DNA from: Trissonchulus latispiculum
Lineage: Eukaryota; Nematoda; Enoplea; Enoplida; Ironidae
Assembly: GCA_030248195.1 (NCBI GenBank)
Contig: JASAND010027828.1
Span: 62,001-126,000, forward strand
DNA: 64,000 nt
Direction: 5' to 3'
The translations under genes and the position numbers were made by a program. The notes beneath the pieces are model-generated. The model saw only the letters and a list, made by a program, of their open reading frames with translations. It had not been told where the DNA came from and searched no databases. This document shows, in pieces, positions 29,601 to 59,823 of the stretch. The stretch's first letter is position 1. Each line of letters starts with the position of its first letter.

Positions 29601-32600
29601 AAAACTAGAGAATTAAAAAGAAAAATTTTTTCCAGCGATTGTCGAGCATTTAGTTCGCAAACCAGACGGTTGCCCCTTAGCAGATGCGTTCTATGCAAAA
29701 ATATCCCTGGACCATTTTTTAGTTGCCCCAATTGCTGCTTTCTAGCTAAGGTTGCCGGCTTGCCAAATTTGGAAAAATAGGCAAAATCAAAGTTACGCAT
29801 ACATTTTAGCTAATTTCTGCATAAGAGCGATTTCATACCTATTTAAAAAAGGGTAACCAGCTATTAGATATAACCGATGTTTCTCGAAAAATTTTTACTT
29901 CAGTCTGCAAAAAACCTGGAAAATTATACTCTTCGAAAATCCAGTAAAAAGTTTTTGGAGAAACAAAATTAGTTTAGTTATTTCATTAAGAAGAGAAAAT
30001 GTTCAGCAACATTTTGATCTAAAGACGACTTCTTAACTCCAAGTAATGGGTGAGTAATAATGGTTCAAAGTTGATATTTCCAAACGGAATCACCACCTTA
30101 AACCATGCTCTTATCTGACTATGTGTTTGAAAATTTGCGAAAAATTTGTCCACTTGTGTTTGTTTGTTTTCTGTTTATTTCTTATTTATTTCTCTACTAT
30201 TTCTGATTTATTTTGGTAGTATGTGTTGGAGTAGAAGCAGTTATTGAGTATGTAATGAGTATTGAGTTATGTAAGGAGTGTAGCAGTACTTATGGCTTGT
30301 TGATTACATTGTTGACAATTGAACATAATTTATATCTAACAAACAGGATTACGGTATTTGTAGGCAGAATGACAGTTTTCACCTTTCCAGACTAATATGT
30401 AGGCATAAGTACAATCTTGAGTTTTGGAGGATTAGTGTAGGCAGAAGTAGAGCCTTGAGTTTTGTCACATTGTAGGCAGAAGTTAAATAGGCATAAGTAC
30501 AGGACACGATTAGAACTAAAACAGTTTTTCAAGCTCTACAAGAATATGTAACTTTCGTTCAAATTCGCGTTCATCAAAGTTTTGTTAATTTATATGCCGG
30601 TTTTGCACGAGTACTGACATGTGCTCGTGTGAAAGGGTGGTTGTGCGTGCGACTTCCACTCGGCTGGCTGCTGGGGTTGTCAGCGCCGGATCGAATAGCG
30701 GTTCGGTACGCCCCCTGTTAGGGCACTAGGATACGTGGAAGGTAGATTTAAAAGTAGACGTAGTTCGGTAGGTCGGTAGGTCGGTAAGTAGGGACTGCGT
30801 AGAATGGCTGCTGAGACAGTGAGTGAGTGAGTTTTTGCATTTTTGGCATAAACTAAGTGAAATTAATTATATGCGAAAACTCACTCCAAACGCAGCCTAT
30901 TATCTGTATTTTAAGACCAAGTAATTAATATAAGCAGGAAAACCATTTAATTGTAGAGCTTTAAATCAAATAACCAGTATTTATTAATTCTTAGTTAGCA
31001 TTACGTAAGTTTCAGTAGTTTAATATATGTGAATAAGTAGGCGTAGTTAGGCTAATTGCAGTAAATAATAGGTGTTTGACCATCTTCCAACCATAGAAAT
31101 TCACAAAAAGGCCGAGTTTCGTTCATATTTGGGATTATCAGCGGGCCTATTTCCCGTGGCAAATCAGCGAAACTAGGCCAAAACCAGGCCGGAAATACAA
31201 GCTCTGTCCCGTCATTTTGTCTGTTCCAGAGAACCTGCAAACTTCTGTCAGAATCCGTTTGTATTAATCTAAAACGGCCCAAACGGCCCGGTTTGTACAA
31301 CTAAAAGGTAGAGGCAAGCGAATTGTCAAATAAGGCGCAAACCGTGAATCTTATATGCGTTTTCAGGGTTGTTCCGCCCAACTGTAAGTTCAGTCAGGCC
31401 CAAGCGGGCCCAAAAAAATAGGAACATAACGAATAATTTCGTCCAAGCAAAGAATTACGTCAAATGTAGCCAAATTCACTACATTACAACCTAAAATTGC
31501 CAGGAAGGCCCATTTGGTGACAAGAAATTACTAGAAACGATTAACATTGTCAAAGAAGCAATAACCAACGATTTTTGAGCCATTTCGTTAATTCACAAGC
31601 TCAAACGGGGCCCAAAATGCACATTTTGGGCCTGGAAAGCAAAAGAACGAGTAATGATTGCTGGGTTCGATTCCCGCACCGTAACCTTGTACTAATGGGG
31701 TTTAACCCATTTGATTCAGGTACGGAAAGAAGCCCTGTCCTGCCGAAATTTGCATCCGAGATTCCAGTACGGTGGACCCAGTTCAGAACTTTGATTCAGT
31801 CAGGTTATTGGTATCAGTATTGTCCGGAAAAGGACCTAGTCAGTTGGAAAGCGATTATCAGTGAATTGTATCAGTCCGAGTCAGTCTAGCGATGGTACAT
31901 TGGAAGCTGAATGATCTTGTAGAGTAGACCACGGCAGAGACAGCAACAGACCAAACCTGATCAAGTTGGGGAATCCGATTGTCCAATACAGAGTGAACTT
32001 TCATTATCTCCCAAGCCAAAAACAGCTTTAACCCATTTTCAATCTGAAATGTCAATTTCCTGCATTCTAAAGTCCAAAACTGTCTCCCCGGCCTCCTTGC
32101 TTTGATTCCCTTCCAGAAGACCAGAAGACCTTTGTTGTATAACTGTACTAATTTTCTATTAATTAGAGATAAGTAAGGAAGGACTGCCCAACTCCCAACT
32201 GTTTCGATTTCCTCAAATTCAATCTCACATAGCATCCCTAAACTGTGTGTCGGAGCGAAAGCGGTGACCGACTTTCGGGGGCTCACCCAAAGACCGACCC
32301 TAGGTTTACAATTAGTAATTTAGTTTATTGTGATACTAGTTTGACAGTCCTATTGTAAGGGGACGTATAAAGAGTAACAAAGCACAAGCATATAGGGTAA
32401 CACATAGCATATAGGGAACTTGAGGTAGAAAGAGTCAGTAGATTAGAAGGGTGTAAAAGGCGTTAAGAGTATCGACCTTGTCCCAATAACTTAATCAAAG
32501 TTTGTAATATTATTCCAAATTGGAATAATATTAATAATAACCTAAAGGGAAATATCTGGCAACTCTGGTACAGTAAATTTGTACTGTATCACACTATATT

Positions 32601-40544: not shown

Positions 40545-40549
40545 ACAAG

Positions 40550-41201
40550 TGTGAAGTACTATGCGTGTACCTCTGTAATAAACTATTATCGGACTTCACT
40601 AGATGATTGCAAGTAGGTATTCAGTGTGTGATATCCAGTCCTAGCCAGGTGAGAAGAGAAGCAACAGAATTATAGATTAGCGAGTAGATTCGAGTGGGGT
40701 CACCTATGAGCCCTAGACGACCGTCTCCTATAGCTAATAGATCAAATTAACCGCTAGATTTTACTATGACAAATACAAAATACTCATACTAACTTTAAAA
40801 TGGACATACAAAACTAATAGAGAGTACAAAAGGGGGCACGATAACAAAACACAAAGAGCACTAGGGAGGGCGTTACCCACTCCCGTACACCTAAACTTCG
40901 CCCCACGTCTCCTACCCAACTGATGAAAGTCACCCTACCACAATGCTGACGACACTCCAACTGACGTAAACCTACACTCTCTCACTTATATATACTTTGT
41001 GCTAGTGGCGTAGCTAGCCCAAAAAGAAATCACCTTTATCATTCACGAATGAGACAAATGTCGAAATAGCTCAGATTTGTACAATTTCATCAAATAGAAT
41101 ACACTTTACGCTACGCATATGAAGATAACGCCACACATACTTTTTAGTGCTGCGCTGCAGCGCAGCTAGTTACTAATGCCCTAAATGGGTAATATCCCAC
41201 A
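40550..41201 (-). repeat. 3' LTR of the minus-strand retrotransposon
   Basis: 652 bp, TGTGGG...TTCACA in element sense (TG...CA). I saw one mismatch against the 5' LTR, at 41159 (A here, T at 52841), near the palindrome CTGCGCTGCAGCGCAG. Confidence 0.93.
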
Positions 41202-41223
41202 AAATACCCCCTCTTTTCCGCCG
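41202..41223 (-). other. Polypurine tract
   Basis: In element sense the sequence just before the 3' LTR reads GGCGGAAAAGAGGGGGTATT, a typical plus-strand primer position. This supports the minus orientation. Confidence 0.75.
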
Positions 41224-43305
41224 CCGGCCCCCCGCGCGGCGATCAATACGGGTGGCACACAAAGTTAAACAATGGTAAAACTGGATTACATTAGTTTTGG
41301 GATCCCAAGTAGTAGTTTTAGAGGTAAAACAGACTGTTAGACCTAGCTAAGGTTAAAAGTGGAGCCAAACGATCCCCACAGCCTGCGAACTACGCGGCTC
41401 ACAGACAAGTCCGGACTGACACTTCGGACTGACACTTCGGACTGGACACTGGGTAAAACTGTGTCGGCTGTGACCGAAACTAAACACAAAACCAACTTAG
41501 ACAGACGAAACGAACATACGAAACAAACGACTAAGCGAAACAAACTATTGACGACTTTTGAGAAACACAGACAACTACGTAAATTTCGAAAACAGTACAA
41601 TAAACACCCGTATGGACCCCCACGCGCAAGGCCGAACAGACAGAAAAGACAGGATACAACGGGGACACTACCCACTAGGGAACCCATCCCAACAATCACA
41701 AACCCCACACTTAAAATCCAAACAGGAACCCCCCACAGAAGAAACCAACTAGAATCCTATAGATAAACAGCAAAATAGAAACAGTCACTAGCGGTTTATT
41801 ATGCATATGTAAACAAAAAATCAGTAAACAAAGAAAATTATCATAAGGCAAACATGTTAAGGCAGGAGTAAAAACGGCAAAACATGGCCTAGCTATCAAA
41901 AGAAATAAACACAAACAATAGGGAGCACCCTGAACAAAAGAAACCGGGGAACAAATAGACTGGATCCCTCCCTTACTGAACAATATGAAGGATCAACCCC
42001 CCTTTCTTATATTTCACAAAAACAGACACAAAAAATGGAATGAAAACGTAACTCACAACAAATACACAACAAAGGGAGAACCAAAACGTCCAGAGCGTGC
42101 CGGGGATAGGACCCAAGACATCATAAACGGAGCAGGCAAACCAGAACTAAATCACCGGGTAGCCAACCCGCCACCAGATCAAAGATAGAGGGGCGACGAC
42201 AACCCCCACAATCAGGTCAGTCGCCCTAGAACAGTCAAACCCAGACGGGTAGCAGTATAGAAATGCAAAGGCGGCCAAGATGTACTGCCGCCACAACAGT
42301 CAAAAGTACAGAACCAGCGAACATCGTGAGCCGGCAGGACAGGCTCCGCATACAACCGTTGAAAGACCACTACAGGGCCCATCCAAAACAACCAAAGGCC
42401 AAACCATGGCCAGAAGGCCAATAAGCCAACCCAACCCAATACAAATGGCAGAACAGTTAATAGGCAGCAAACAGTAAAGATGGTGAAAAAGCACGGTAGG
42501 GTAGCACAGTCTGGACAGACAGGGCTGGAGAGCCACACTGCCGAAATAGCACAAACACCAACCCATCCGACTGCCGAAGACAGGGTCCAAAACGACTAGG
42601 GGCACCGGTATCCACTTAGTTGCCTGGACTCCGAACAGCATCCGTCGAGGGAGGCACGCTCATCGCGACAAGGGGGTGTGGGTTCCGTACAGTAGCAAAC
42701 AACCATTCACCTAAACACAAAAACAAAAATTAAAGTACTGTGAATAAAGCAAGACCAGTATAGAATCAATGCAAAACGATAAGCAAAACAGATTTATAAA
42801 ACACAGCATGGATATAGTAAAGCCCGCAACTGTAGCACGACCGCGGCGGTATGAGTACCCCAAAGATGACCCAGGTTTAGGTAACAACCTTTGGAGACCC
42901 ACACCACAGCGAAAACCCGAAAGTAAAACCGTAAAGTACTAGTCAAGTGTAAATAGATAAGAAACAAGGGTCTGGGGGAGACGGGCCACTCCGTGTCCCA
43001 GTCTTAGGTCTACAAAGTGACTCGCCCACCCCAGGACCCCTTCAAACCATAAGGTATAAACGCGTGAAATAATAAGTATGCCCGAGCGAACCAGAAAACT
43101 AGATAAAAATTCGACAAACAGAAGAAGAAAAAAATTTTTTCAAAATAAAATTTAATCGAAGAAAGAGACCCCTAAGGTCAGCATAGAAAGGTTGAATAAT
43201 CAAGGAAATATGAACGAAATTTTTAAAGAATCAGCTCGGGTACAAAGCTTTTCAGAGAATTTCCACACGGGGCTGCAGAACAACAACAACGCACAACAAC
43301 GCCCC
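41224..43305 (-). other. Retrotransposon 3' region without recognised genes
   Basis: In element sense this is T/G-rich, giving hydrophobic but unrelated short frames on the minus strand (for example 42212-42538 and 42300-42641 overlap in different frames). No single frame runs through, and no envelope or chromodomain features are seen. It may be long 3' UTR or decayed coding sequence. Confidence 0.45.
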
Positions 43306-44340
43306 CTACACATTTTCGGCCTCAATCACCCTAACCTCCTGTACCCGGTAGTCTGCTCGCATTGCCGTAACCAAGTCCGGCAGGTCAGAGAACAGTTCGC
43401 TCCGTAAGACCATGTGGAGCTTGCCCATCCAATTTTGATGGGGAGCCGTAGTGGTCGGATTTAAACACGTCAAACGCGTGTAATCCTGTGGCCCCATGTG
43501 GTTAAGCATGGTCTTCGCCTTACCGACTCCCCAGTACACGTTCTCAGAGGCTTCGACGATGAGTCGAACTCCCGTCGACGCTAGCCACTCACGATATGAT
43601 GGGCAAACCTGAGCCTTTGCTCGAGTAACATCGAGCATAACAAATGCTCGCACATGGACTTTGGGATGTTCCCAGAAACGTCGAAACGGAACTGACCGAT
43701 CAAACCAGCCCCTGGTGTAATGCTTCGACCCCTGCATAGCCTGAAACGGGTGACCCCGCGAGGCCAGGTATCGAGCCGGCTCAGGCAAGCAAAACCAGTA
43801 GTCGATTTTACGATGATGGTAACCGCTCTCCGAAAAACGGTATTCATGCCCATAGATGTTCAAATACGGGTGGTGACCCCGTTCGCCCGTGTCCGGAATA
43901 CGGTGCATGTTAGAAGCCACCATGTGTTCACCCGAACCCTGTTGTCCCGTTTCCACAACAGCTGAAATACCAGAGGTCGTGATAGACCCGAGTATTGTAG
44001 AGCCCGAACTTACTAATGGTAATCCCGAACTTGTTGCAAGAAGGCCCGAACTTTTTGGGGGGGGTCCCGAACTTATCGGAGCGAATCCCGAACTTATCGC
44101 GACAGAGACCGAACTTATCGGAGCAGAGCCCGAACTTGTCGGGACAGAGCCCGAACTTATCGGGACAAAGCCCGAACTTATCGGGACAGAGCCCGAACTT
44201 GTCGGGAGCCCGAACTTAAGTTTCAATAGTTTGAGCATCAGGGGGAGGTGAATAGGGGGCGGAGGGGGGGCGTACAACCCCACCCGACATGACCCCGGAG
44301 CAGGAACGCCAAAATGCTCGAAATGATCATGCTGCGCCAT
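43306..44340 (-). CDS. NADAR-domain (YbiA-like) protein encoded by the retrotransposon
   Basis: From ATG at 44340 the ORF is 344 codons; the frame is open upstream to a TAA near 44456. Residues 1-45 are Pro-rich. Residues 46-120 are about ten 7-residue repeats of SGSVPIS type. Residues ~160-317 match the NADAR pattern: SESGYHHRK (170-178, the usual SEhxYQxxK site), AKAQVCP (241-247), TG then IVEAS (256-265), YWGVG (269-273) and NWMGKLHMVLR (303-313). NADAR proteins are linked to NAD/ADP-ribose chemistry, and bacterial members are reported to remove ADP-ribose from guanosine; activity here is inference. It starts 490 bp after the Gag-like frame stops, inside the same LTR pair and on the same strand, so it should be part of the element. 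How it is translated (splicing, re-initiation) is unknown. Confidence 0.78.
   Translation of the reverse strand: MAQHDHFEHFGVPAPGSCRVGLYAPPPPPIHLPLMLKLLKLKFGLPTSSGSVPISSGFVPISSGSVPTSSGSAPISSVSVAISSGFAPISSGPPPKSSGLLATSSGLPLVSSGSTILGSITTSGISAVVETGQQGSGEHMVASNMHRIPDTGERGHHPYLNIYGHEYRFSESGYHHRKIDYWFCLPEPARYLASRGHPFQAMQGSKHYTRGWFDRSVPFRRFWEHPKVHVRAFVMLDVTRAKAQVCPSYREWLASTGVRLIVEASENVYWGVGKAKTMLNHMGPQDYTRLTCLNPTTTAPHQNWMGKLHMVLRSELFSDLPDLVTAMRADYRVQEVRVIEAENV
43980..44217 (-). repeat. 21-bp tandem repeat coding for a 7-residue motif
   Basis: Units such as CCCGAACTTATCGGGACAGAG (one base over 20 in full, period 21) repeat about ten times with divergence growing toward 43990. On the minus strand they encode the SGSVPIS-type repeats at the N-terminus of the NADAR protein, in frame throughout. 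Confidence 0.85.
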
Positions 44341-44830
44341 CTGCTGCAATTGTTCAAGAGAAACCTGTTGAACTCGTGGAGGAAAATGTGCTGAACCCCC
44401 ACGAGTAGCAACAATACAAAAATGCTGAGAGACACACTCTAATTTAAGGAAGCATTATCCAAATTTTTACGGTTAGACATAATTATTCAAGAAAAGTATT
44501 CTACAGGTGCCCACACAATTTTATCGAAAGAAAAGGATTCAATCAAGGAAAAAAATTCAGAGAAAAGAAAAACACATGAACAGACCAAGATCAAAAGGTA
44601 GAGCCTAAAGTATGAAAAACTGACCGAAAAGTCCTGAAAATAACCTTAAAAGGGGCAATGCCCACAACCACAATTCAGATATAAACCTAAACATGAAGAA
44701 AACATAGATATGCCTAAAACCATTATATACGTATAAATTCTGAAATTGCAAAATTAACAAATTACAGCAAAACGAGATCAGTAGTGTGAGATACATACAT
44801 ACTACAGTTGAGGGGAAAATAAAATAGAGG

Positions 44831-47800
44831 TTACTGGTCGGGTGTCAATTCCATCAGAAACGGTTTGAATCTATTCACATGAACAGTTTCAGGAGGGGCA
44901 TCTACCTTGAAAGTAGATTGAATTTGACAGTTGGTAGGAGAAGTAACTTTAAGGACCCGGCAAGGCCCCTCAAAAGCCGGAAGGTATTTGCGGCTTGCCC
45001 CCTTCTGAATATTTGCTCGTGAAACGTCCTTCCAAACCATCATGCCTTCCTTATACTTAATAGGTTTACCCTTAGAATCATATTTGTCCTTGCGTTTTTT
45101 CTGGACCTGTGTACGTACATACGTATATTCCGAAATAGTGCCCCGAAAAAGGTCAGGCCACGGAATACGTACGTACCCGTGTTCGCCCGGATGTACTGAC
45201 GTGGATAGATAGTAATAATGCCTGTTGTTGTCCAAAGTTTGAGGCTGACTTTTATGAGATGTAGAAAAAATTTGTACAGAAGTCACAAGATCGGGATGAG
45301 AAAAGCTCGGTATGACAAGTTCGGGATGACTTAGACTTGAAAAAATATGTTCTGGGTGGTCCTGTGACGGAGGTTCAGCAGCTGAACCGGCCCGGTCGAA
45401 CCCAGGTGCAAGCTGAGCTGCCAACGAAGGCGACTCCAGGAGGGCGGGGTCAACCCCCCTCACCTCCTGAGGCCAACCTTCCCCCCATACAAGACCAAAT
45501 TTAGAAAAGGGAGGAGCCAAAAGAGTTTCTGACTCCTCCCGTAGCCGAAAAACCGGCTGGTCCTCCACCCAAACTTTAACTTCACCTGAAAAAGCTACAG
45601 AAATTAGAGGTAAACCCAAACTATGCCCTTCTTTAATAAAGGAAAGGTCCTTCCCCTGTAAAAGACACCATTTCAAAACTTTCTCCCCACCGTCTCCCAA
45701 GCTCAAGTCACTTGTTAGGGGAGGGTCGGGGGGTTCGGGTGGAGCTGTTACCCCTTTTTGTGCAGATTTCACTTCTGGAAGTTCATCTTGGACCTCACAA
45801 GCATCAATCGGAAGAATTTCAGCCATAGGGCATTTTACTGCCTTTACCCCCTCTTTTTGGGGTAGGTTCACACCTACCCCCTCTTTTTGGGGTAGACTCA
45901 GGGCTACCCCCTCTTTTTGAGGTAGATCCTCCGTTGGCCAGAAGGCAAAAGAAAAAACGCTATCATCTTCAAAAGCTGAATCAGTTGCCAACTTATACGT
46001 AAGAGCTGAGGCGACATGAGGGGGAGGGATACCCAAATTATCATCAACTGCAAAGACGATATCATTGATATAAGGGTCTTGAGAGACAGAAGCTTGAGAG
46101 GAATGTAGGGGCTTTTCTGGAACCGACACACCCCCCGGGGCGGGTCTGGATGGTGGATCGGCCGCACACCCAGACACGCCCCCACTGGTCCCAGTCCCAG
46201 AGGCCGCGTCAACCACCGCACCCTGTGACTGAGACACAGCGAGTCCCGCAGTCTGCTCCCAAGACATCACAATCGGTGAGGGAGATTCCCCATTCAGAGA
46301 GAGCAGAGGGGGAGGGTCGGGACCCTCCTCCACGGGTTGGACTACTTCGTCAGTTTCGGGCACCGCCACTTCACAGCGCAAAATATCTTCACGTTCGAGT
46401 TTTTCCGGCCACGCATCTGCGATGGCATGGCCCAAATCAAAAATTTGCTTCTTCAAAACCTCAGTAAACTTTTTCATATGATTATACGTATGCATGTGAA
46501 TAGCTGCTAACGTCGTAAAATTTGACTGGATCATAGAAAAAGACTGAACAATTTGTTCGGGAGTCGTATCCGCTGGAGAACCTACCCCAAACACGTGTAA
46601 CTCCGAAGGCTGTGGTTCGGTCTCAACATAACCTATAAGGTGTTCAACCCCTTTTTGTTGGGCCAAAACGCGGGGAGGGAGGGTGCCCCCCTGTGGATTT
46701 GCAACGCTCTGGTCTGATGCTCTAACAAAATGTTGTGCTAACGGTGCCGCCAAAGGTTGCGTGGTAACGCCTCGAACCGAGGGTGCTGGGGCCGGGGCCA
46801 AGGGTGCCGGCAAAGCAGACACGGCTGCACCAGGTGAAACAACTTGACCCGTGCTCTGAGCTGGCGGTGCCTCCCACTGTGGACCATATGCATGCTGGCC
46901 CGAAGAAGGCTGTGGGGCGGGCAGAGCTAAAGGGACAGGAGCAGGTTGTAAAGCTGGATAAACCGGCTGCTGTGCACAAAACTGCGGGTAAACTGGTACG
47001 TACTGAGTAACTCCAGCTACCTGTTCCCTGGGGAGAGGTCGCCCCCTCCAACCCGCCGGGGCCAACTGAGGGTATTTGTCCCAACAATTGTTAGGATCAT
47101 GGCCCCTCCTGCCACAGTGGAGGCACTTATCTTTGTGCTTATCCTCAAACCTAGGCCGTGCATCCTTCCCTTTTTCCCATAGTGCCCGAAGATCCTGCAA
47201 TTCCTTACGTAGCTGTTCCAACGGGTCGTTAGAACTCCCGCCCGGTTCTGCTCTCTCTGAGGATGCCACATGATAGATTGGGGGGTCATACGACAATCTA
47301 TCCCCTGGGGTGGGGCGTGGGGTTCGGGCGTCGAGTTTGTCAATCACCCGCAAAATGTCTTCCATAGACGGTTCCCCATACGCCCCCAAAGGGACGAGCG
47401 ACGCCGCGTACTTGTCATTTGCCCCGGCATAGACCTGCTGGACACAGTGCTTCTCCCGGTCACCCGGGTCACTCCAGATATCCAGCGCCAAAGCTTGCAA
47501 TTCCGAGATATATTTACGTATGTGTTCTCCGGGACGTTGAAGTCGGTAAACAAAAGCTGTATATTTTTGCTGGTACGACAACTGCGGTTTAGGAAACTGA
47601 GTTTTCAAAAGTTTCAAAATACTATCATATGAATCGATCATAGAAAGACCCGCACGGGAGGCATAAATTTGAGCCTTACCCGCCAATTTACTGTATAAAA
47701 GACGAGGCCACTGATCTTTGGGAATTTGATACGTTTCCACTGCAGATTCAAATTGTGGAAGCCAGTCTTCAACGTAGAGTAATTCTGGGTCAAACCGTGG

Positions 47801-48709
47801 AACGTCCCGGAGAATTTCTATATACGTACGAAAAAGGCGCGGGTCGTGACCTGAAACTGAAGCATCCGTGGCCACCATGGTCGCCGGAGTTGGGTGACGG
47901 ACAGGCGTCGCTCGTTCCTCCTTGTTAGAAAAAACCCCCTTTTGACTAACTTGCTGTGCAGAAAAACCCGGGGGGGCGCCCCCCCTATCTGGCGGAGGAG
48001 GCAAGTCAGAAGCCACCCTTGAATTTCCCAATACAAAATCTGACGTTTGGACATTCTGTGGACTGGTTTCCACCGTCTGATTTACAGCTGGCGCCGCCGG
48101 ACCTATAACCGCTTGGATAGGTCCCGGTACGTACGTATGGGCCGCCGGTTGTAAAGCAACAGAATTTCCAGCAGCAAATTGTGTCGGAGAATTATATACG
48201 TATACTGGATTTCCGTACATATCGACGGCATAATAGCCGGGTTGTGCCGCAGACGGCACAGGCTGCACAATCTGAGGTGTATACGTATATAATGGCTGCT
48301 GGACCGGGGATTGTGATTGAGAAAAACCCGGCATAGACGACAGCATTTGGGCCGGTTGTTGAACGTTTTGGGCGGCCTGTGCTTGACCTGACGGAGAAGC
48401 GCGCTGAAACGTACCTTGCGGGTGCTGTGCAGACGGTGGACACCAAACATGTCCTGAATTTTGACCAAAATTAGGTAATCCCCCTGAGGCGCCGTTTACA
48501 AGACTGGGGACTCCCAAAGTGGGTTGCCCCACCTGTCCCCGGGACGACGAGGCCGAACTGCACCCTTGATCTGACGTAAACTTAGACGTACTTTGCGACT
48601 GAGATTGGCACTCGGGCGCAGAAGATTCAGGTCGTCCCTGGGGAGACGGAACGGGCGCCCCCCGATTCTGATCATGTCCACCCAAACTTCTGTCGGGTTT
48701 TTCTGGCAT
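44831..48709 (-). CDS. Gag-like polyprotein fused to an integrase C-terminal domain
   Basis: 1292 codons without a stop. Residues 1-275 are P/Q/S-rich. About 295-460 is a retrotransposon Gag capsid-like helical region (DWLPQFESAVETY and FVYRLQRPGEHIRKYI). A zinc knuckle CLHCGRRGHDPNNC (CX2CX4HX4C) is at 529-542. Residues ~560-1200 are Pro/Glu-rich with three LPQKEGV repeats (DNA about 45840-45930). The last ~83 residues (YDSKGKPIKY to the end, with KYLPAFEGPCRVLKV and VHVNRFKPF) resemble the end of Ty3/Gypsy integrases. The enzymes normally lying between are missing, so this looks like an internal deletion that kept the frame open. The ATG at 48709 is not the original start: coding-like sequence continues upstream in other frames to 52203. 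Confidence 0.85.
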   Translation of the reverse strand: MPEKPDRSLGGHDQNRGAPVPSPQGRPESSAPECQSQSQSTSKFTSDQGCSSASSSRGQVGQPTLGVPSLVNGASGGLPNFGQNSGHVWCPPSAQHPQGTFQRASPSGQAQAAQNVQQPAQMLSSMPGFSQSQSPVQQPLYTYTPQIVQPVPSAAQPGYYAVDMYGNPVYVYNSPTQFAAGNSVALQPAAHTYVPGPIQAVIGPAAPAVNQTVETSPQNVQTSDFVLGNSRVASDLPPPPDRGGAPPGFSAQQVSQKGVFSNKEERATPVRHPTPATMVATDASVSGHDPRLFRTYIEILRDVPRFDPELLYVEDWLPQFESAVETYQIPKDQWPRLLYSKLAGKAQIYASRAGLSMIDSYDSILKLLKTQFPKPQLSYQQKYTAFVYRLQRPGEHIRKYISELQALALDIWSDPGDREKHCVQQVYAGANDKYAASLVPLGAYGEPSMEDILRVIDKLDARTPRPTPGDRLSYDPPIYHVASSERAEPGGSSNDPLEQLRKELQDLRALWEKGKDARPRFEDKHKDKCLHCGRRGHDPNNCWDKYPQLAPAGWRGRPLPREQVAGVTQYVPVYPQFCAQQPVYPALQPAPVPLALPAPQPSSGQHAYGPQWEAPPAQSTGQVVSPGAAVSALPAPLAPAPAPSVRGVTTQPLAAPLAQHFVRASDQSVANPQGGTLPPRVLAQQKGVEHLIGYVETEPQPSELHVFGVGSPADTTPEQIVQSFSMIQSNFTTLAAIHMHTYNHMKKFTEVLKKQIFDLGHAIADAWPEKLEREDILRCEVAVPETDEVVQPVEEGPDPPPLLSLNGESPSPIVMSWEQTAGLAVSQSQGAVVDAASGTGTSGGVSGCAADPPSRPAPGGVSVPEKPLHSSQASVSQDPYINDIVFAVDDNLGIPPPHVASALTYKLATDSAFEDDSVFSFAFWPTEDLPQKEGVALSLPQKEGVGVNLPQKEGVKAVKCPMAEILPIDACEVQDELPEVKSAQKGVTAPPEPPDPPLTSDLSLGDGGEKVLKWCLLQGKDLSFIKEGHSLGLPLISVAFSGEVKVWVEDQPVFRLREESETLLAPPFSKFGLVWGEGWPQEVRGVDPALLESPSLAAQLAPGFDRAGSAAEPPSQDHPEHIFSSLSHPELVIPSFSHPDLVTSVQIFSTSHKSQPQTLDNNRHYYYLSTSVHPGEHGYVRIPWPDLFRGTISEYTYVRTQVQKKRKDKYDSKGKPIKYKEGMMVWKDVSRANIQKGASRKYLPAFEGPCRVLKVTSPTNCQIQSTFKVDAPPETVHVNRFKPFLMELTPDQ

Positions 48710-48986
48710 ATCTTCCTGGGCCTGGGGAGAGGCCGCAGCTGCAGACTTCGCGGAGTGGGAGGGACTTGCTGATGTTGTAGCTGAATCAGGTCATTTTCAG
48801 AAGTTTGGTTCGGAACCGGTTCGGGATTATTTTCCCCCGAACTTTTCTCCCCCGATCTTTTTGATCCCGAACTTTTCCCCCCCCCAACAAATCAGAAACC
48901 GTGACTGGCGCCAAACCGAGGTCTTTCCGCCGGTAATCCAGATAATTCTGCATAGCTGACAAAAGTTGCTCGTCTTGCGAATCTGA
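48710..48986 (-). pseudogene. Gag segment with frame changes
   Basis: Protein-like sequence runs through all three minus frames in turn. From the transposon junction (48986) to a run of nine C (48877-48885) it continues the 52203 frame. It then shifts to a frame with SSGSKRSGEKSSG repeats, and near 48770 into the frame of the 1292-codon ORF. Either there are two indels, one of them at the homopolymer, or one or both are assembly errors. Confidence 0.6.
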
Positions 48987-51462
48987 GGGCCTTTTCGCGA
49001 ATGGGTAGAGTAGAGTAGAGTAGAGTAGAGTTAAAATTAACTCTTTTAACTCTTTTCGCGAATGCACAGAGTTAAATTTAACTCTGCCTGTTTTTAACTC
49101 TTTTAACTCTGCAGGGTTAAAAATCACAGAGTTAAAAGAGTTAAAACTGGGAGAGTTAAAATTAACTCTGTGCATTCGCGAAAAGAGTTAAAGGAGTTAA
49201 AACTGGGAGAGTTAAAATTAACTCTGTGCATTCGCGAAAAGGGTTAAAAGGGTTAAATCTGGGCGATCTGAAATTAATTCTCAGCATACTAGATAAAAGT
49301 CTAAATAATTCTCTTTTCGCAATATCCAACTTTTCACAATTTGAAAATTTTTAAAAAGTATATACTGCTCAACGTTGGGAAAATTTTAAATAAAATGACT
49401 AATAAGAAAAGAAAAAGATGATGTGTACTCATTTCTTCAATGAAGCGTTATCCGGTGTTAGGAAAGTGGACGAATCCCTGTGTGCAACTTGCAGTCTTTA
49501 ATCGATTTTGCTGAAAAGCTGCACGGATGCAGTTAAACAAACAATTGACCAAAACTTTAAGCATCGAAGGGGTTAACAACATTGGTAAAAATACAATCTA
49601 AAGGGAACCAACCAAACATTTTTCTATGATTTTCCTGAAAAGTTGCGTATACAAGAGGATTGATTCACTCTGGAAACCGAAAAATTTTTTGTCGCCGACT
49701 TTGCTGAAAGCATACAGGTTTTTGGCTCGCTGAGCACGAATTTGAAGGCCGTTCTTCGATTCAGCTTTTTGTTAGCTCAGTATAAGCTTACAACTTAAGC
49801 TTACATGTTTAGCTCATATCGACCTAACGGAATCGAAAACCGGACTTCAAATTCGTGTTCAGCGACCCCAGAAAACCCCTGTACGCAGCTTTTAAGTAGT
49901 GATGTTTCAGCACCTGAAACTGAAACTGAAAATAGTACAGCTCGATGCTTGAAACTGAAACTGAAACTGCAAAGAATCGACGACTGAAACTAAAACTGAA
50001 ACTGAATCTGAAAATCCGACGAGCAACCGCCTGAATCTGAAGCTGAAATTCAGATAAAATGAGGCCTGAAACTGAAACTGAATCTGAAACTGAAATTCGG
50101 ACGAGCAACCGCCTGAAACTGAAAATCCTCAATTAGCAGACCTGAAACTGAAAATAAATTGGGCGGCTGAAACATCAGCACTTTTAAGCAAAATCGGCGA
50201 CAAAAAAATTTCGGTTTCCCTTGGTCGCCCCCTGCGAATGGAAAAAATCGATTCTTGTGAAATAGAAAAATTATGTGATATTTGAACTCAGCGTGGTTGA
50301 AAACATATCCATACCAAATTTCAGCAGAATTAGTCATGTTTTAAAAATTCTGAGTGGTGGGGGCTAATCTGGAAAAGACCCCAGACAGAGCCCAACCCGC
50401 TGTACATATTTTCAGTAAAATAAGTTTCTCTTGGTTCTCCCAAGAACATAATTACCAAAAAAACAAACAGATGCAGCAAAATAAAATCGAAAATTATGAA
50501 TTGAAATTCAGCAGAGATTTCAAATTTGACTAGAAATGGTTGCCCTTAAATTGAACAATTGATCATGTACTGTCATTCTTGAGCATTACCAGTTCCAGCA
50601 AAATCCGCGTAACATTTGTCTAGATGTCCTTCCATAAAGTCTAAAGGTTCAAATTTTTTAAAGTTTACAGTAATTTTCATGGCTAAATTGGCGCTTTAAC
50701 CTATTTTTGAGAGAAAATTGAGCTTGCGGTTAGTTGTAGCGTCCCGTTGATTCGGCTTTCCATGTTGCAGCTCTCATACACACTTCTTCAAATTTGCATT
50801 CATAAAGTGGAGTTAAATAACTTGCAAAAATAATTTAGAGCTTATTTATAATTATAATTAATTATTTTAATTTAGCTATATAATTTTATTTAATTATCTT
50901 TTCTAACAATGCAGCATGTTTAAAACATTTTGTTCCATCTATTTTTATTTTATTAATTAGAATATTTCGTTGCCTTAGCGTAAACAATTCAGCAGAATAT
51001 TGACAAATGCTTAAGTAATTTTGAAGCATTATGAACCATCCAATGAAATTATGTCTTGTGCTTTCATTGGTTGGATTGTCTTGTCATATTGAAACCTTTA
51101 TTACGCGCGCAAAACGTGGCAATAACAATGTAAAGCATAGTAGATTTTAACTCGTTTAACCCGCGTGCTGAGACGCGGGTTAAAATTCAATGTAAAATAG
51201 CGAGAGCGAGTTAAAAGAGTTAAATTTAACCCATTCATGAAAAGGGTAGAGTTAAATTTAACTCTGCAGCTTTTTAACTCTACGTGTCGTTCATGAAAAG
51301 AGTAGAGTTAAAAGAGTTAATTTTTAACTCTTTTCGCGAATGACGGCAGAGTTAAAAATTTTAACTCTGCTTAACTCGCCGAGTTAAATTTAACTCTTTT
51401 AACCCATTCGCGAAAAGGATCGAGTTAATTTTAACCCGTTTAACCCATTCGCGAAAAGGCCC
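48987..51462. mobile_element. GGGCC-ended DNA transposon (Harbinger-like?) inserted in gag
   Basis: TIRs GGGCCTTTTCGCGAATGGGT and their near-perfect complement bound 2476 bp, with a 3-bp TSD TGA (48984-48986 and 51463-51465). Both arms are arrays of GTTAAAATTAACTCT and GTTAAAAGAGTTAAA with CGCGAATG/CGCGAAAAG punctuations (48995-49260 and 51140-51455). The interior is non-coding and hosts a hAT element at 49897-50180. GGGCC ends and 3-bp TSD suggest PIF/Harbinger relatives; no transposase is present. Removing the element and one TSD copy gives a continuous gag frame across the site. Confidence 0.85.
49897..50180. mobile_element. Short hAT-type element, CTGAAACTGAAA-rich
   Basis: TSD CTTTTAAG is exact at 49889-49896 and 50181-50188. 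TIRs TAGTGATGTTTCAGC and GCTGAAACATCAGCA pair at 12 of 15 positions. The whole body is made of CTGAAACTGAAA-type repeats in mirrored orientation. It lies inside the GGGCC element, making it the third nesting level. Confidence 0.88.
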
Positions 51463-51465
51463 TGA

Positions 51466-52203
51466 GTCATCAATTTCAACAGATTCATCAAAGGCATCAA
51501 ATTGGGGGCCGGGAGTGAGGATTTGCCCCTCCTGAGGCAAATCAGAAGTCTGCAGCAGTTCCGGTCCCCCAGACAAAGATTTTACTGTAGTTTCCTCCCC
51601 AGAAACTACTACTTCTGGGGGAATGGCATCTGATAGCACTTGGGGACCCCCCGACTGCGACGTTAGAGACCGGGAACCCGCAGACTGCGAAACTTGGGGA
51701 CGGATAGCCCCAGATTGTGACCGCGTCACTGGCCCCCCAAAAGTTTTATTTAAATGACCACCATACGGGGCCTCTGAAGATGTAGACGGGGCCGTGGAGG
51801 TAGAAACCCCCAACTGGGACTGGGTCCGGCGGGAACTTGTGGGTGGGGGGGGAATCCGGGAGGGTCCCCCTCGCCCCCCTGATCCTCTTTCTGTGACAGG
51901 TTTCGCCTTAGAATTTTGCCCTTCCCATAATTGTGGGGGAATATCGGGAACATAACCTTCCGGTCTCCTGGGGGTCCCCCTTCCAATGCCTGGGACGGTT
52001 CCTCCCGGACTAGTGTTGGGGGAGACACCCCCCCGACCACGACCCCCCGATTTTGCAATTCCTTGCTTTGAAGCCATGGGAGTCCCTCTATCTAAATCGA
52101 CCGGTCCGTCAAAATACGACAAGATCCCCCAAAGTTGTGCTCTTTGCTTATTTCGCTTATCGTGCTCCCTTTTCCTCTCAGAAAAAGCTAGAACTTTGGA
52201 CAT
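51466..52203 (-). CDS. Gag N-terminal part, interrupted by transposon
   Basis: ATG at 52203 lies just after the primer-binding-like site. About 246 codons are Gly/Pro/Arg/Ser-rich with no recognised domain, ending at the TSD of the inserted transposon. The annotated frame then runs ~35 codons into the transposon before a stop at 51361. The frame continues without shift on the other side of the insertion, so this was the original start of the Gag polyprotein. Confidence 0.75.
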
Positions 52204-52208
52204 CTACT

Positions 52209-52226
52209 GAAAAATCACGGTCGCCA
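52209..52226 (-). other. Primer-binding-site-like sequence
   Basis: In element sense TGGCGACCGTGATTTTTC starts 5 nt after the 5' LTR. A tRNA ending CACGGTCGCCA would pair with the first 11 nt; a tRNA-Arg type is my guess, unverified. Confidence 0.6.
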
Positions 52227-52231
52227 CTATT

Positions 52232-52883
52232 TGTGAAGTACTATGCGTGTACCTCTGTAATAAACTATTATCGGACTTCACTAGATGATTGCAAGTAGGT
52301 ATTCAGTGTGTGATATCCAGTCCTAGCCAGGTGAGAAGAGAAGCAACAGAATTATAGATTAGCGAGTAGATTCGAGTGGGGTCACCTATGAGCCCTAGAC
52401 GACCGTCTCCTATAGCTAATAGATCAAATTAACCGCTAGATTTTACTATGACAAATACAAAATACTCATACTAACTTTAAAATGGACATACAAAACTAAT
52501 AGAGAGTACAAAAGGGGGCACGATAACAAAACACAAAGAGCACTAGGGAGGGCGTTACCCACTCCCGTACACCTAAACTTCGCCCCACGTCTCCTACCCA
52601 ACTGATGAAAGTCACCCTACCACAATGCTGACGACACTCCAACTGACGTAAACCTACACTCTCTCACTTATATATACTTTGTGCTAGTGGCGTAGCTAGC
52701 CCAAAAAGAAATCACCTTTATCATTCACGAATGAGACAAATGTCGAAATAGCTCAGATTTGTACAATTTCATCAAATAGAATACACTTTACGCTACGCAT
52801 ATGAAGATAACGCCACACATACTTTTTAGTGCTGCGCTGCTGCGCAGCTAGTTACTAATGCCCTAAATGGGTAATATCCCACA
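52232..52883 (-). repeat. 5' LTR of the minus-strand retrotransposon
   Basis: 652 bp, a direct repeat of 40550-41201 with one visible difference. Followed by CAAG, matching the other flank. Confidence 0.93.
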
Positions 52884-52922
52884 CAAGGTGCTCCGACCAC
52901 AATACACGAGTGTTCCCCTCTG

Positions 52923-55672: not shown

Positions 55673-57267
55673 TATGCTTTAATTATATACATCGTAATTT
55701 CGTTATCTTCTATGTATTATGGAATCACGTAAGCAGTTGTTTGTGCAACTCTGTGAATATCCTGTTCAGTAAAGCGTTTTATTTTTTGTACGACTGTACT
55801 GTAATGTGTGAGTGTGATGTGTGTTGTGTGTAATTTTAGTGAGTTTATTTTAGTGTGAAATTTTAGTAAGAGTGGTGTTTTTGATGAGAAATATGTGTTG
55901 TGTAAATTTGTGTTGAAATTGGTGTGAAAGTGATTATTTTCTATGTTAAAAAATGCGTGTGTTTTATTCAGCCCACTTAGCGACTAGGTGGCGCTGTTTG
56001 TCCTTTGAAGTTTCTCTGTGGATGCTCGCTGAGCATCCAGTTTGCAAGAGGGTCTCAAAATTCAGCCAATCAAAATCTACTAGGCATCTCTCTCAGCCTT
56101 CACTTTAAAAACCAGTCAGTCTTCTCTTTTTGTTGTCTAGCGTGCGGTCGGTCGTTTAATTCTGCCTAGCGTATTTTTATATAGTGCCTCTCTCTACGTC
56201 TCTTGGATTTCAAGAAGGGTTGTAAGTTAATGATTTTAGTTTTCTTCCTTCTAGTAGACTCCGAGGCGACCTCGTGGGTCGACCTAAATTTATTGGTAAT
56301 ATTTTATTGAGCTTTATTCCCTTTTAATCTAATTCTTTAATATGTACGTTTATTTTAGAAAGAAAGTTTTAGTAGGTCGTTACAAGTAACTTAGTTCAGC
56401 CGCGACGGCTTAGGGATATAACTTTGAGATAATAATTTTGAAGGGGTTTAAACAAATTTGCGAGGTTTGATTTGTTCTTTATAAGCTGTTTTATAATCGT
56501 ATCGAATAGTTATTCATGTTTAGTGTATGTTTGGTTATTTCTTGAGTGGTAGTTTAGTCTAAATTTCTCTGTTGTCGTACTTTTATTTGATGAATATTTA
56601 AATGTTTAAAAATTACGATGCTATGTATCTTTCGGGAGTTTCTCCCTTTGTCTACTTATATTAAATGTGGTCTCAGTAGATGAGCCATTAGGGAACTTTA
56701 GTTAGGTTTTTATTAGAATTGTATAGTCGGTAGGTAGGACTTTGAGTCATTTCCCAAGTCTAGGTAGGCTAATAATTCACTGAGCGTGTATTAAATTTAA
56801 ATCAAAGTTTCGTTAGTAGTTGAGTAGTTAGACTGTCATTTGCCCCTTTAGCCAGTTCCTTTATCCATTTCTTAAGCTTAGTTAGTTCTTGGCGAGATCT
56901 GCCCAGGTCGACTGGAACATAAGTCTCCTCCAGGTTCGCCGTTTCCATACGCGCACAGTTTCCACCCGTAAAGTTTGGTTGCCCTAACACTTCCAACTTT
57001 ACATTAGGCTGCCAGTCTTCGACCTTTGTCTTTTTATTGTTCCTGTTCTAGTTTATTGTTGTCTTCTTGTTTTTCCTGTTTTTGTCATTATAGTAGTGTA
57101 TTTGTGTTGTGCTTTCTCGGATTTGATCTCCTAATATTTTGCTTGTATAAATCACTTGGTCGTTCTTTTAATCGTTCTGTTTTAACTTAATTTGCTATTT
57201 TAACTAATTGTACGTGCTTAATTGTTGATTCTCTTTTTCTTGTAATTTTCTTTTTGGCTTTTCTATC
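55673..57267 (+). other. Probable 5' LTR/leader of the Ty3/Gypsy element
   Basis: No gene-like frame on the plus strand. GT-rich tract at 55800-55960, a TATATAG motif at 56180-56186 followed by pyrimidine-rich DNA, and T-rich leader up to the gag ATG. The 3' LTR lies beyond the window, so LTR limits and primer-binding site cannot be set. A 64-codon minus frame at 56802-56996 is not recognised. Confidence 0.45.
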
Positions 57268-59823
57268 ATGTCTGTTCAGCATTCACCTGCGAAAACGTCC
57301 AAGGCTTCGACCAAGCCGGCCGATACGGCCTCTTCAAGTGACACGGCGGACAACCGACCCTTGAACGCAGACGGGTTTGGGCGGCTATTCCCTCCATCTA
57401 ACTTGAGTAAGAATTCCTCTACTCAATCATCGTCTAGCCAGGCCTCGGCGGGCCCTGCATCTACAAGCGCTGCGCTTAGTAGACCGTTCTTGCGATCAGA
57501 TTCGGCCAAAAATAAGGCCTCCAAAAGGGGGGAATTATTCGAAGATGTCATGGATCAGGGTCACGACGACCAACAAGAGGATGAGACCTCACAGAAGACC
57601 GATGAATTCCTGTCACCCACCGATCAGGGTGAAGTTATCGAAGAGGAATGGGACGAACAGGCAAGCATTAGAGATCAGCTGGAGTTCCTCCGGCTTAAAC
57701 TGGCTCGGATTGATTCTACTCTCCGGGACAGAGAACCTGATAAGGATCCGCTAGCAGCACCGGTACCAGGTATGTCTGATGTTTCGGATTTAAGAGCTTT
57801 TGTAAATCAACTGGAATTGAATTTATTCCAGCAGCGCCCACGGTTGGGGTCGGATAGTTCCATCATACGTAAGCAACCAGGCGCGAGACCTTTCCCTCCG
57901 TTTACCCGCCCTAAGCCTCGACGGCAAGAGGGGGGTGCACCCTCGCGACATTCGGGGCTAGCAGGCCCTAGTGAACCAGCAGTGGCTGGCCCACGATATC
58001 GCTCAACAGCTCATATTGACCTCACACGGTCAAAACGCCCGAAACGGGCTAGCAGCAGCCAACGGCCAGACGGGGGCGATCCAGAACAAGATCCGGATAA
58101 GAAACCGAAAGTGCGCGGACCCATGGATGCGTGGGTGGTCCCGCTACGGGACCAACCCACTGTACCGGTCCGACACCGGCCCCAAACGCCGGATACCGCT
58201 GGCCTCTTCCGGGTGAGAGGCCTGACTGAGCAGGAATACGGGGTGATCAGGGGCCTGCTTACAGCATGGATAGCAGACATCCCACAACAAACCTGGGAGG
58301 CACTCGAACAGAACTTCCCTCGAGTTTGTATGGAGCTGTTGCGTATGTGGCCCAACCCCAGCATGGATCCAGATGCAGGGGCTCCCCCATTTCGAATGGG
58401 GCAGTCTCAGCCAGCTCGGCAGCCGAGCCCGGAACCGGTCCGTAGTCGCAGAGGGAGCCCACAGCGGGCCCCACCAATTGTGGATCTGGATTCCTCTGAT
58501 GACCAGGTGAGAGGTTCACCGGTGGCGCAACCCCGCCGGCGGAGAGATGATATACGGCGGTCTAGAACCCCATCACGGGGCTACCAGTCCCCATCCCCTG
58601 TGCGTAGAACGCCTAGCCCTAGGCGCTATTCGCGGGACCGGGATTACCCTGCCTCTCGACGAGAGCGGTCGCAACGACCACGTATTTCAGAGCAGCGAGA
58701 ACCCTCCTCATACGAGAGTTTTAAACATCTGGGTGAATACCTGAAGGGTTTTAAGGGGGTTAAACCCTTTCAAGGGTCACAGAGTAACATCAAGTTTACT
58801 AGTTGGTTGGCGAATTTCGAAACCACAGTAAAGGTTCATGACGTGCCAGCTGGTATGAAGTATAGAATTTTGTGGACCTTACTTGATGACAAGGTCAAAG
58901 AATCCATGACCCCCTGTCCACCGGATACTTTCGAGGACCTAGTGACTAGGATCCGACAGTTGTATGAACCCTTGCCCGTTACTACGGAACAATATGCTGA
59001 ACAATTTTACAGCCGGATGCAGGAACCGCGCGAAAAGCCGCATGACTATATGGCAGCGCTGCGCTTGCTAGCAGTGCAAGCATTTCCATTCGAACCTGGT
59101 TTCGATCGGGAAAAGAAGGTGGTGGCTCAGTTCAAACGAGGTTTGAAGGCGGATTTGCGATCTAGAATGGCGGCCCCATTGGCCGACATCCAATTCTGGC
59201 CCCATGTGCGGGAGAACGACTTGATCACTCGGGCTCTCCATATTGTGGAGTCAGTACAGGTAGAACTGGATAAGGAACAGGCCGTTATGGTCTTTAGTGC
59301 CCAGAGTCAGGGACCACGAGGCTATAATGCCACTCAGGGGCGACCCCAACAGGACCAACAGCGGCCTCAAGGGCAAAGCCAGAATCAGAACCAGACTCGT
59401 AACCAGGGTTATCAACGGAACGACGAACGACCACCACCACGCGCGCCTATGGGCAGGTGTTGGCAATGCGGTCAGGTCGGCCATAGGCAACAACAGTGCC
59501 CCGATTACCTGCAATACCTGAGTCAGAATAATCAGGGCCAACAGCAGGCTAGGGGTTACGTCCATCGACAGTACCGGGATGGAGGCCAGGAGGGTGACCC
59601 CCCTGCCCGGAGTCGCTACGACCAGAACCAACGGAACCAAGGACCAAGGAATCAGGACCAGCGTAACCAACAGGAGCCGCAACGGCAACAAGGCCAGCAG
59701 GACCAGAGGAATCAACGTCAACAGCCGGTTAGACCCCGCTCTATTAGCCGGGGTTATGTAGGCCCACGTCGGTATGAAGGTTTCCCGGAAACGGGAAACG
59801 AGAACGCGGGGCACGGGCAGTAG
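57268..59823 (+). CDS. gag: Gag of Ty3/Gypsy-type retrotransposon
   Basis: 851 codons from ATG to TAG. Residues 1-480 are Ser/Pro/Arg-rich and low complexity, with an acidic heptad-like stretch near 130-160. Residues ~481-680 form the capsid-like region (FTSWLANFETTVKVHDV, YDYMAAL-like DYMAALRLLAV, VVAQFKRGLKADLRSRM). The zinc knuckle CWQCGQVGHRQQQC (CX2CX4HX4C) is at 731-744, followed by a Q/N/R-rich tail. The last codons overlap a -1 frameshift signal. Gag should form particles and package the element RNA. The long N-terminal extension makes it larger than most Gypsy Gags. Confidence 0.92.
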   Translation: MSVQHSPAKTSKASTKPADTASSSDTADNRPLNADGFGRLFPPSNLSKNSSTQSSSSQASAGPASTSAALSRPFLRSDSAKNKASKRGELFEDVMDQGHDDQQEDETSQKTDEFLSPTDQGEVIEEEWDEQASIRDQLEFLRLKLARIDSTLRDREPDKDPLAAPVPGMSDVSDLRAFVNQLELNLFQQRPRLGSDSSIIRKQPGARPFPPFTRPKPRRQEGGAPSRHSGLAGPSEPAVAGPRYRSTAHIDLTRSKRPKRASSSQRPDGGDPEQDPDKKPKVRGPMDAWVVPLRDQPTVPVRHRPQTPDTAGLFRVRGLTEQEYGVIRGLLTAWIADIPQQTWEALEQNFPRVCMELLRMWPNPSMDPDAGAPPFRMGQSQPARQPSPEPVRSRRGSPQRAPPIVDLDSSDDQVRGSPVAQPRRRRDDIRRSRTPSRGYQSPSPVRRTPSPRRYSRDRDYPASRRERSQRPRISEQREPSSYESFKHLGEYLKGFKGVKPFQGSQSNIKFTSWLANFETTVKVHDVPAGMKYRILWTLLDDKVKESMTPCPPDTFEDLVTRIRQLYEPLPVTTEQYAEQFYSRMQEPREKPHDYMAALRLLAVQAFPFEPGFDREKKVVAQFKRGLKADLRSRMAAPLADIQFWPHVRENDLITRALHIVESVQVELDKEQAVMVFSAQSQGPRGYNATQGRPQQDQQRPQGQSQNQNQTRNQGYQRNDERPPPRAPMGRCWQCGQVGHRQQQCPDYLQYLSQNNQGQQQARGYVHRQYRDGGQEGDPPARSRYDQNQRNQGPRNQDQRNQQEPQRQQGQQDQRNQRQQPVRPRSISRGYVGPRRYEGFPETGNENAGHGQ

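What the first reader, a model, noticed from the sequence alone, without database searches (positions are those of the whole stretch)
43306..44340. LTR retrotransposon encodes its own NADAR (YbiA-like) protein
The ORF lies between matched LTRs, on the element's coding strand, and is intact over 344 codons. Its second half has the NADAR signature order (SExxYHHRK, AKAQxCP, TG-x4-VEA, YWGVG, NWMGKLHMVLR). NADAR domains belong to NAD/ADP-ribose biochemistry, and bacterial relatives are reported to reverse guanosine ADP-ribosylation. A retroelement carrying one could be countering a host ADP-ribosylation defence against its nucleic acid or particles, or using it in packaging. The defence role is speculation; the domain and its location are what the sequence shows.
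Basis: partly seen in the sequence, partly recalled or inferred. Interest (0 to 1): 0.88.

Follow-up and report, generated by a model that had tools for sequence, protein, structure and literature searches.

The report
NADAR gene carried by LTR retrotransposons
A family of virus-like jumping genes in this genome carries its own copy of an enzyme domain that, in relatives, strips ADP-ribose off DNA and RNA; selection has kept that domain, so it probably does useful work for the element.

Summary
Window 43306-44340 (minus strand) is a 344-codon ORF ending in a NADAR domain (PF08719, E 7e-7, under the curated cut-off; best structure matches are two NADAR/YbiA entries). It lies in an LTR element: 652-nt LTRs, 1 mismatch, duplication CTTG. 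dN/dS against three relatives is 0.11-0.13, and the aligned catalytic E, K, E are kept.

Corrections: the window copy is a recent deletion derivative lacking RT, RNase H and integrase core, and its ORF is an in-frame remnant of a protein whose open frame in relatives reaches 1,650-1,790 aa, after pol. A second Ty3/Gypsy-type lineage carries NADAR at the end of another post-pol protein, and Polinton-like elements carry a separate one.

Retroelement NADARs are already reported (Ectocarpus Gypsy Pol; oyster Tx1 LINE ORF1), so this is a new variant of a known kind. Removal of ADP-ribose from element nucleic acid is the likeliest role; untested.

The parts
52884..52887 (.). target-site duplication CTTG, 5' side of the element
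52232..52883 (-). 5' LTR, 652 nt, TG..CA
   Evidence: 1 mismatch with the 3' LTR
52215..52226 (-). primer-binding-site-like stretch (complement of a tRNA-Arg 3' end: recalled, not tested)
   Evidence: read; tRNA identity recalled
51361..52203 (-). 5' ORF of 280 aa, cut by the insert; its last codons lie in the insert
   Evidence: no Pfam match
48987..51462 (.). insert with inverted ends GGGCCTTTTCGCGAA and flanking TCA; MITE-like, not part of the element; borders read by eye
   Evidence: read; internal repeats
44831..48709 (-). gag ORF, 1292 aa, fused in frame to an integrase C-terminal remnant
   Evidence: capsid region matches the gag of the neighbouring Gypsy element (BLASTP 5e-8 for the single pair)
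47030..47842 (-). gag stretch used as query in the genome search
   Evidence: 143 matches
47084..47125 (-). CCHC zinc-knuckle pattern in gag
   Evidence: read by eye; no Pfam match
44861..44968 (-). Integrase_p58_C remnant, suggesting that pol once lay between gag and here
   Evidence: PF22938 E 1.6e-4, 22.1 bits, below cut-off 27; relative L042 has RT/RH/IN just after the matching gag end
43306..44340 (-). NADAR ORF, 344 codons, in-frame deletion remnant of a roughly 1.7-kilo-residue protein
44066..44207 (-). 21-nt tandem repeat coding the serine/glycine spacer
   Evidence: longer in relative L037
43393..43929 (-). NADAR domain
   Evidence: PF08719, Foldseek/VIA-align
43828..43830 (-). Glu171 codon, aligned with catalytic E43 of the P. 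nicotianae NADAR by motif and spacing
43807..43809 (-). Lys178 codon (K50 equivalent)
43552..43554 (-). Glu263 codon (E125 equivalent, YbiA-type)
41207..41219 (-). polypurine tract
   Evidence: read
40550..41201 (-). 3' LTR, 652 nt
40546..40549 (.). target-site duplication CTTG, 3' side

Best explanation
The NADAR domain is the conserved C-terminal domain of a large protein (open frames of about 1,650-1,790 aa in the longest copies) encoded downstream of gag-pol, where retroviruses keep env, in a family of Ty3/Gypsy-type LTR elements. The window holds a young, non-autonomous copy. In-frame deletions removed the pol core and some 600 aa of the NADAR protein but left the gag ORF and the NADAR domain open. 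Most likely mechanism: the domain hydrolyses ADP-ribose from guanine (or a related N-glycosidic ADP-ribose adduct) on the element's RNA or cDNA, undoing a host ADP-ribosylation that would block reverse transcription or translation. Shown: domain, fold match, catalytic residues, linkage to gag, purifying selection, RT/RH/IN in one relative. Inferred: substrate, host enzyme, benefit to the element.
For: Profile and fold matches. E171, K178, E263, N303 and G306 are kept in 25 of 25 NADARs aligned from this genome, the window included (4 further fetched loci, L005, L007, L008 and L031, were left out), and E, K, E, W, N, G in 4 of 4 close copies. In C11078 the stretch between gag and NADAR holds RT E 1e-27, RNase H 1e-33 and integrase 2.5e-15 in one frame. 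Window NADAR against L037, L040, L041: dN/dS 0.111, 0.130, 0.131, substitutions piling up at third positions; the shifted-frame control on the L037 pair loses the signal. All or part of the window element's LTR lies 3' of NADAR in 3 of 3 close relatives fetched with that flank. Published: all NADARs tested removed ADP-ribose from guanosine in RNA (PMC11833690, passages) and guanine de-ADP-ribosylation is conserved in a eukaryotic NADAR (PMC11543638, sections 11-12 and passages).
Against: No enzymatic, expression or transposition data. The window's own Pfam score is below the curated cut-off. The domain is far from all NADARs compared: in the tree it has a branch of 4.61 and sits, weakly (77/78), beside a bacterial NADAR and not with the other element-borne ones, so its substrate may differ. 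No host ADP-ribosyltransferase was looked for. Two of the three relatives used for dN/dS (L040, L041) have broken long ORFs, so the ratio records past constraint; dS saturates beyond the close family (8 of 16 pairs). 2 of 34 shared contigs have gag and NADAR on opposite strands and 1 nearest pair has NADAR 5' of gag. Only one relative was checked for pol and found to have it; in C6745 no pol was found in the 7 kb fetched upstream.
Confidence: 0.6

Rival explanations
1. Passenger: a host NADAR gene happened to insert into this one copy, or was captured once without function.
For: Seen in the window alone, one copy could not exclude this; LTRs only 1 of 652 different mean an ORF could stay open without selection.
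Against: Many copies carry it 3' of gag with dN/dS 0.11-0.13 in the four compared, and five contigs (C7396, C1341, C14536, C9016, C21460) with only 52-53% gag identity also carry it at 49-52% NADAR identity.
Confidence: 0.03
2. The domain processes small ADP-ribose or NAD-derived molecules (immune signals, NAD metabolism) rather than nucleic acid.
For: Proposed for phage and other DNA-virus NADARs (PMC9503650, passages); YbiA itself cleaves riboflavin intermediates (PMC11543638, passages).
Against: For eukaryotic RNA viruses the same authors favour macromolecular ADP-ribose. The riboflavin equivalog model scores 21.6 against a cut-off of 73.7.
Confidence: 0.25
3. The domain has become a binding or structural module (for example ADP-ribose reader, RNA binder in the particle) without catalysis.
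For: It sits at the end of a long protein with a repetitive spacer. A nematode trans-splicing protein turned up in a search for NADAR (PMC9303266, search listing only).
Against: The three catalytic residues are kept in 25 of 25 copies aligned.
Confidence: 0.15

Closest known systems
Ectocarpus Gypsy lineage with NADAR (e.g. Gypsy-12_Ec32; PMC12477816, section 5 part 1 of 2 and find passages)
   Same: A Ty3/Gypsy element lineage with a conserved YbiA-type NADAR; authors suggest processing of the RNA intermediate.
   [quoted passage not shown] here it ends a separate large ORF after pol. No sequence comparison was possible.
Crassostrea gigas Tx1 LINE ORF1 NADARs (mentioned in PMC12477816)
   Same: Retroelement-encoded NADAR, animal host.
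   Different: Non-LTR element, ORF1 position.
NADAR of Phytophthora nicotianae (PDB 8bau) and E. coli YbiA (2b3w)
   Different: 19-25% identity in those alignments; an extra loop before the last helix and a long N-terminal extension here.
DarT1-associated NADAR antitoxins (BC4488 family; PMC11543638)
   Same: NADAR domain; guanine ADP-ribose hydrolysis in those.
   Different: They use Asp where this protein has Glu263.
Positive-strand RNA virus NADARs (PMC9503650, passages)
   Same: NADAR in an RNA-genome parasite's polyprotein, proposed to undo host ADP-ribosylation.
   Different: Not reverse-transcribing elements.

Membership tests
NADAR superfamily (PF08719) | profile match over the domain | tested here: met
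   E 7e-7, 30.1 bits, under the cut-off 35.1; relative L038 35.4 bits, over it; relative L037 22.3, under it
NADAR superfamily (PF08719) | YbiA/NADAR fold | tested here: met
NADAR superfamily (PF08719) | catalytic Glu and Lys (E43/K50 of P. nicotianae) | tested here: met
   E171 and K178, same spacing of 7
NADAR, YbiA subfamily | Glu in the last strand (E125), not Asp or His | tested here: met
   E263; Glu in 25 of 25 aligned
NADAR, BC4488/DarT1-associated subfamily | Asp at that place, DarT neighbour | tested here: not met
   Glu263; no DarT search was made beyond the Pfam scans of the element
YbiA riboflavin N-glycosidase (TIGR02464 equivalog) | score above equivalog cut-off | tested here: not met
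   21.6 against 73.7 bits
NADAR superfamily (PF08719) | ADP-ribosyl hydrolase activity | not testable with these tools
   needs enzyme assay
Ty3/Gypsy LTR retrotransposon | LTRs, short target-site duplication, gag | tested here: met
Ty3/Gypsy LTR retrotransposon | RT, RNase H, integrase in the window copy | tested here: not met
   only an integrase C-terminal remnant; gag ORF and minus-strand frames of the rest searched
Ty3/Gypsy LTR retrotransposon | RT, RNase H, integrase in a relative with the same gag and NADAR | tested here: met
   C11078 (L042): RT 1.1e-27, RNase H 1e-33, integrase 2.5e-15; one relative examined this way
[quoted passage not shown]
   NADAR lies 3' of the integrase remnant in the window and 3' of gag and pol in C11078

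The most novel reading that the evidence does not exclude
NADAR has become a shared tool of unrelated mobile elements in one animal-like genome: two Ty3/Gypsy-type lineages (a 1.7-kilo-residue post-pol protein; an exonuclease-like-NADAR protein followed by a kinase) and Polinton-like elements. This would mean that the host marks invading nucleic acid by ADP-ribosylation as a genome defence, and that the elements answer with eraser enzymes.
Probability: 0.35. Interest if true: 0.9.

Novelty: new variant of a known kind. Interest (0 to 1): 0.72.

Why it matters
ADP-ribosylation of nucleic acid is established as toxin and phage defence in bacteria, while its role in animals is open. A retroelement family that keeps an eraser's active site under strong purifying selection, with other mobile elements of the same genome also carrying the domain, points to a substrate worth finding. 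It also gives a direct test: look for ADP-ribosylated retroelement RNA or cDNA in this host.

Tried and rejected
Protein searches with the whole ORF (7,987 candidates scored) and with its NADAR part (110 candidates) found no relative at E 1e-3 in 5.8 billion proteins. A five-sequence alignment found 1,503 proteins, 120 listed; the named ones are bacterial or phage NADAR/YbiA, most have no name; the best BLASTP of the window ORF to those 120 is E 6e-9. The second-type NADAR of the same genome (L012) gives E 1.6e-10 in a small three-sequence comparison, so the two are not strictly comparable. Viral-contig scans with NADAR and gag: no relatives. An alignment of diverse NADARs was too variable for locus scans. 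Host-gene insertion: rejected (see rivals). Tree placement of the window NADAR: long branch, weakly beside a bacterial row, unsure. The exonuclease-like N-terminus of the second lineage matches PF01612 only weakly (L016 E 9.6e-5, 22.7 against a cut-off of 23.6; L019 0.083; L020 0.19; none in L012 and L015: 3 of 5 tested); the window's own family gave no such match (0 of 2, L038 and L039). PDB gave nothing for L012, and a profile of the five does not detect the N-terminus of the window's family, so I do not claim an exonuclease there. The LTR was never counted genome-wide: its search did not complete. The neighbouring element's large post-pol ORF (L014) has no Pfam match and no detectable NADAR. 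Pol upstream of the long NADAR ORF was not found in C6745 within the 7 kb fetched, so that copy's layout is unresolved. Paper searches about NADAR in retroelements: 104 papers, 20 listed; 71, 40 listed; 2; 2; 1,548, 15 listed; PMC12477816 is the only listed one I saw that treats it. NADAR with Polinton: 0 papers (on the same terms and on NADAR with Maverick failed). The library is open-access only.

Full report
What is in the window. The element runs on the minus strand from 52883 to 40550. Its two LTRs are 652 nt, differ at 1 position, begin TG and end CA, and are flanked by the 4-bp duplication CTTG. After the 5' LTR come a primer-binding-like stretch, a 280-aa ORF cut by a 2.5-kb MITE-like insert whose borders I read by eye, and a 1292-aa gag ORF. 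The gag capsid region matches the gag of the next element in the window (BLASTP 5e-8 for that pair). The end of the gag ORF is an integrase C-terminal remnant (PF22938 E 1.6e-4, below cut-off). No RT, RNase H or integrase core was found in the gag ORF or in the three minus-strand frames of 41202-44830 and 48710-52231; the other frames were not scanned. The NADAR ORF follows, 344 codons on the same strand, then 2.1 kb, a polypurine tract and the 3' LTR. One difference in 652 means the insertion is young, so the open ORF in this copy alone proves nothing about selection.

The domain. Pfam (under its cut-off), PHROGs, an HMM of database NADARs with shuffled controls, and structure comparison agree on NADAR. 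The AlphaFold2 model is poor overall (pLDDT 56.6) but has blocks at 70-94 in 141-180, 221-270 and 301-320; the only PDB matches with Foldseek probability 1.00 are YbiA and the P. nicotianae NADAR, both at E 3.4e-3. E171 and K178 have the spacing of E43 and K50, and E263 falls where E125 does (PMC11543638 section 12). These residues, with N303 and G306, are identical in 25 of 25 NADARs aligned from this genome: the window's, 10 of the second lineage and 14 Polinton-type, several of them near-copies. Four more fetched loci (L005, L007, L008, L031) were not put into that alignment. Two residues invariant in the 33-row mostly bacterial alignment, R220 and W223, are not kept in the other NADARs of this genome.

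The genome test. PF08719 alone gives 2,478 first-look candidates in the window's genome; 150 were scored and all 150 exceed the cut-off, at 124.6-150.3 bits. The window's NADAR, at 30 bits, is far below that range, so that list shows other families. With the window NADAR (208 aa) as query: 1,013 candidates, 150 scored, 159 matches, of which 150 rows are listed, the window and partial or broken matches included; a first set lies at 69-90% identity and a second at 46-55%. With gag as query: 2,597 candidates, 142 scored, 143 matches. The 150 NADAR rows (147 contigs) and 143 gag rows (140 contigs) share 34 contigs, against about 1 expected by even draw. On 32 of 34 the nearest pair is on one strand, and on 31 NADAR is 3' of gag within 20 kb. 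The exceptions are C13669 (nearest gag on the other side; a second gag lies 14 kb off on the expected side), C16019 and C6209 (opposite strands). Distances between lower coordinates fall in three groups: 3.7-4.8 kb (8, the window among them), 5.6-7.3 kb (8), 11.2-15.3 kb (14), plus one at 18 kb. I read the long group as gag-pol plus the full NADAR protein and the short ones as deleted forms; that reading was checked in one copy only. C11078, from the long group, has RT, RNase H and integrase in one open frame between gag and NADAR, and just before the RT lies a stretch matching window gag residues 1025-1201 at 69%.

The full protein. In C6745 the NADAR ends an open frame of 1,790 aa (pieces), and in C3784 one of 1,650 aa. 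Window residues 48-141 match L037 ORF residues 184-277 and 137-344 match 886-1093, so the window ORF has lost about 600 aa in frame. In three close relatives fetched (L037, L040, L041) all or part of the window element's LTR follows the NADAR end; in L040 the LTR match is about 190 nt. The long ORF is open in L037 and broken in L040 and L041.

Selection. Window against L037, L040, L041 over 208 codons: dN/dS 0.111, 0.130, 0.131; among the relatives 0.088-0.121; substitutions by codon position 33/17/78, 19/16/58, 18/14/59. Reading the L037 pair in shifted frames removes the contrast.

Other carriers. I fetched 20 further NADAR loci chosen from the 150 rows. Eight are of a second type: a protein of 688-731 aa in L015, L019 and L020 (in pieces in L033) that ends in NADAR; 4 of the 8 (L015, L019, L020, L033) have Gypsy pol upstream on the same strand, and L016, L017, L018 and L027 show none in the stretch. 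The other 12 have Polinton-type NADARs, 10 of them with a packaging-ATPase or capsid match in the stretch, L021 and L025 without. The C20750 copy of the second type is bounded by 701-nt LTRs, 98.3% identical, and holds gag, aspartic protease, RT, RNase H, integrase, a kinase domain (E 3.5e-24) and a match to a viral fusion glycoprotein profile (PF24664 E 7.6e-10); its NADAR protein is broken. A kinase was also found by Pfam beside the NADAR protein in L012 (E 4e-18); other loci were not tested for it. Of 16 NADAR pairs, 8 have saturated dS. The rest: second type 0.062, 0.064 and one pair without amino-acid change; Polinton type 0.04-0.13 in 5 pairs. In a 32-row tree the six second-type NADARs form one group (100/100) and join the Polinton ones (95/98); the window's does not join them.

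Mechanism. NADARs are the only hydrolases found in one study to remove ADP-ribose from guanosine in RNA (PMC11833690, passages), and a eukaryotic one acts on guanine-ADP-ribose in DNA (PMC11543638, sections 11-12 and passages). A retroelement exposes both RNA and cDNA. The simplest reading is that the protein, packaged or made in the cell, cleans element nucleic acid of ADP-ribose. I put the anatomy at about 0.95 and this mechanism at about 0.4.

Known or new. [quoted passage not shown] In the listings I saw I found no report of a post-pol NADAR protein, of the exonuclease-like-NADAR/kinase arrangement, or of NADAR with Polinton.

Noticed in passing
L035, L033, L036 (G000 C20750): LTR element (701-nt LTRs, 98.3%) with gag, fusion-glycoprotein-like match, protease, RT/RH/IN, a NADAR protein broken in this copy, and a kinase ORF after pol.
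   Followed up: partly
L005-L010, L022-L024, L026, L028-L032, L034: Polinton-like stretches with a NADAR gene near an A32-type packaging ATPase and/or capsid-like ORFs; L006 also has a TATA-binding-protein ORF (E 5.7e-37) beside it.
   Followed up: partly
window 48987-51462: MITE-like insert with ends GGGCCTTTTCGCGAA and flanking TCA inside the element's 5' ORF; a related stretch lies at 29495-29618.
   Followed up: no
window 57229-64000 and L014 1-9562: A second Gypsy element on the plus strand with gag, pol and a 2,246-aa open frame after pol that has no Pfam match and no detectable NADAR.
   Followed up: partly
L020 3097-4740: Weak match to a PARP14 WWE domain (E 0.16) in the NADAR protein of the second type; probably chance but on theme.
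   Followed up: no
   Followed up: no
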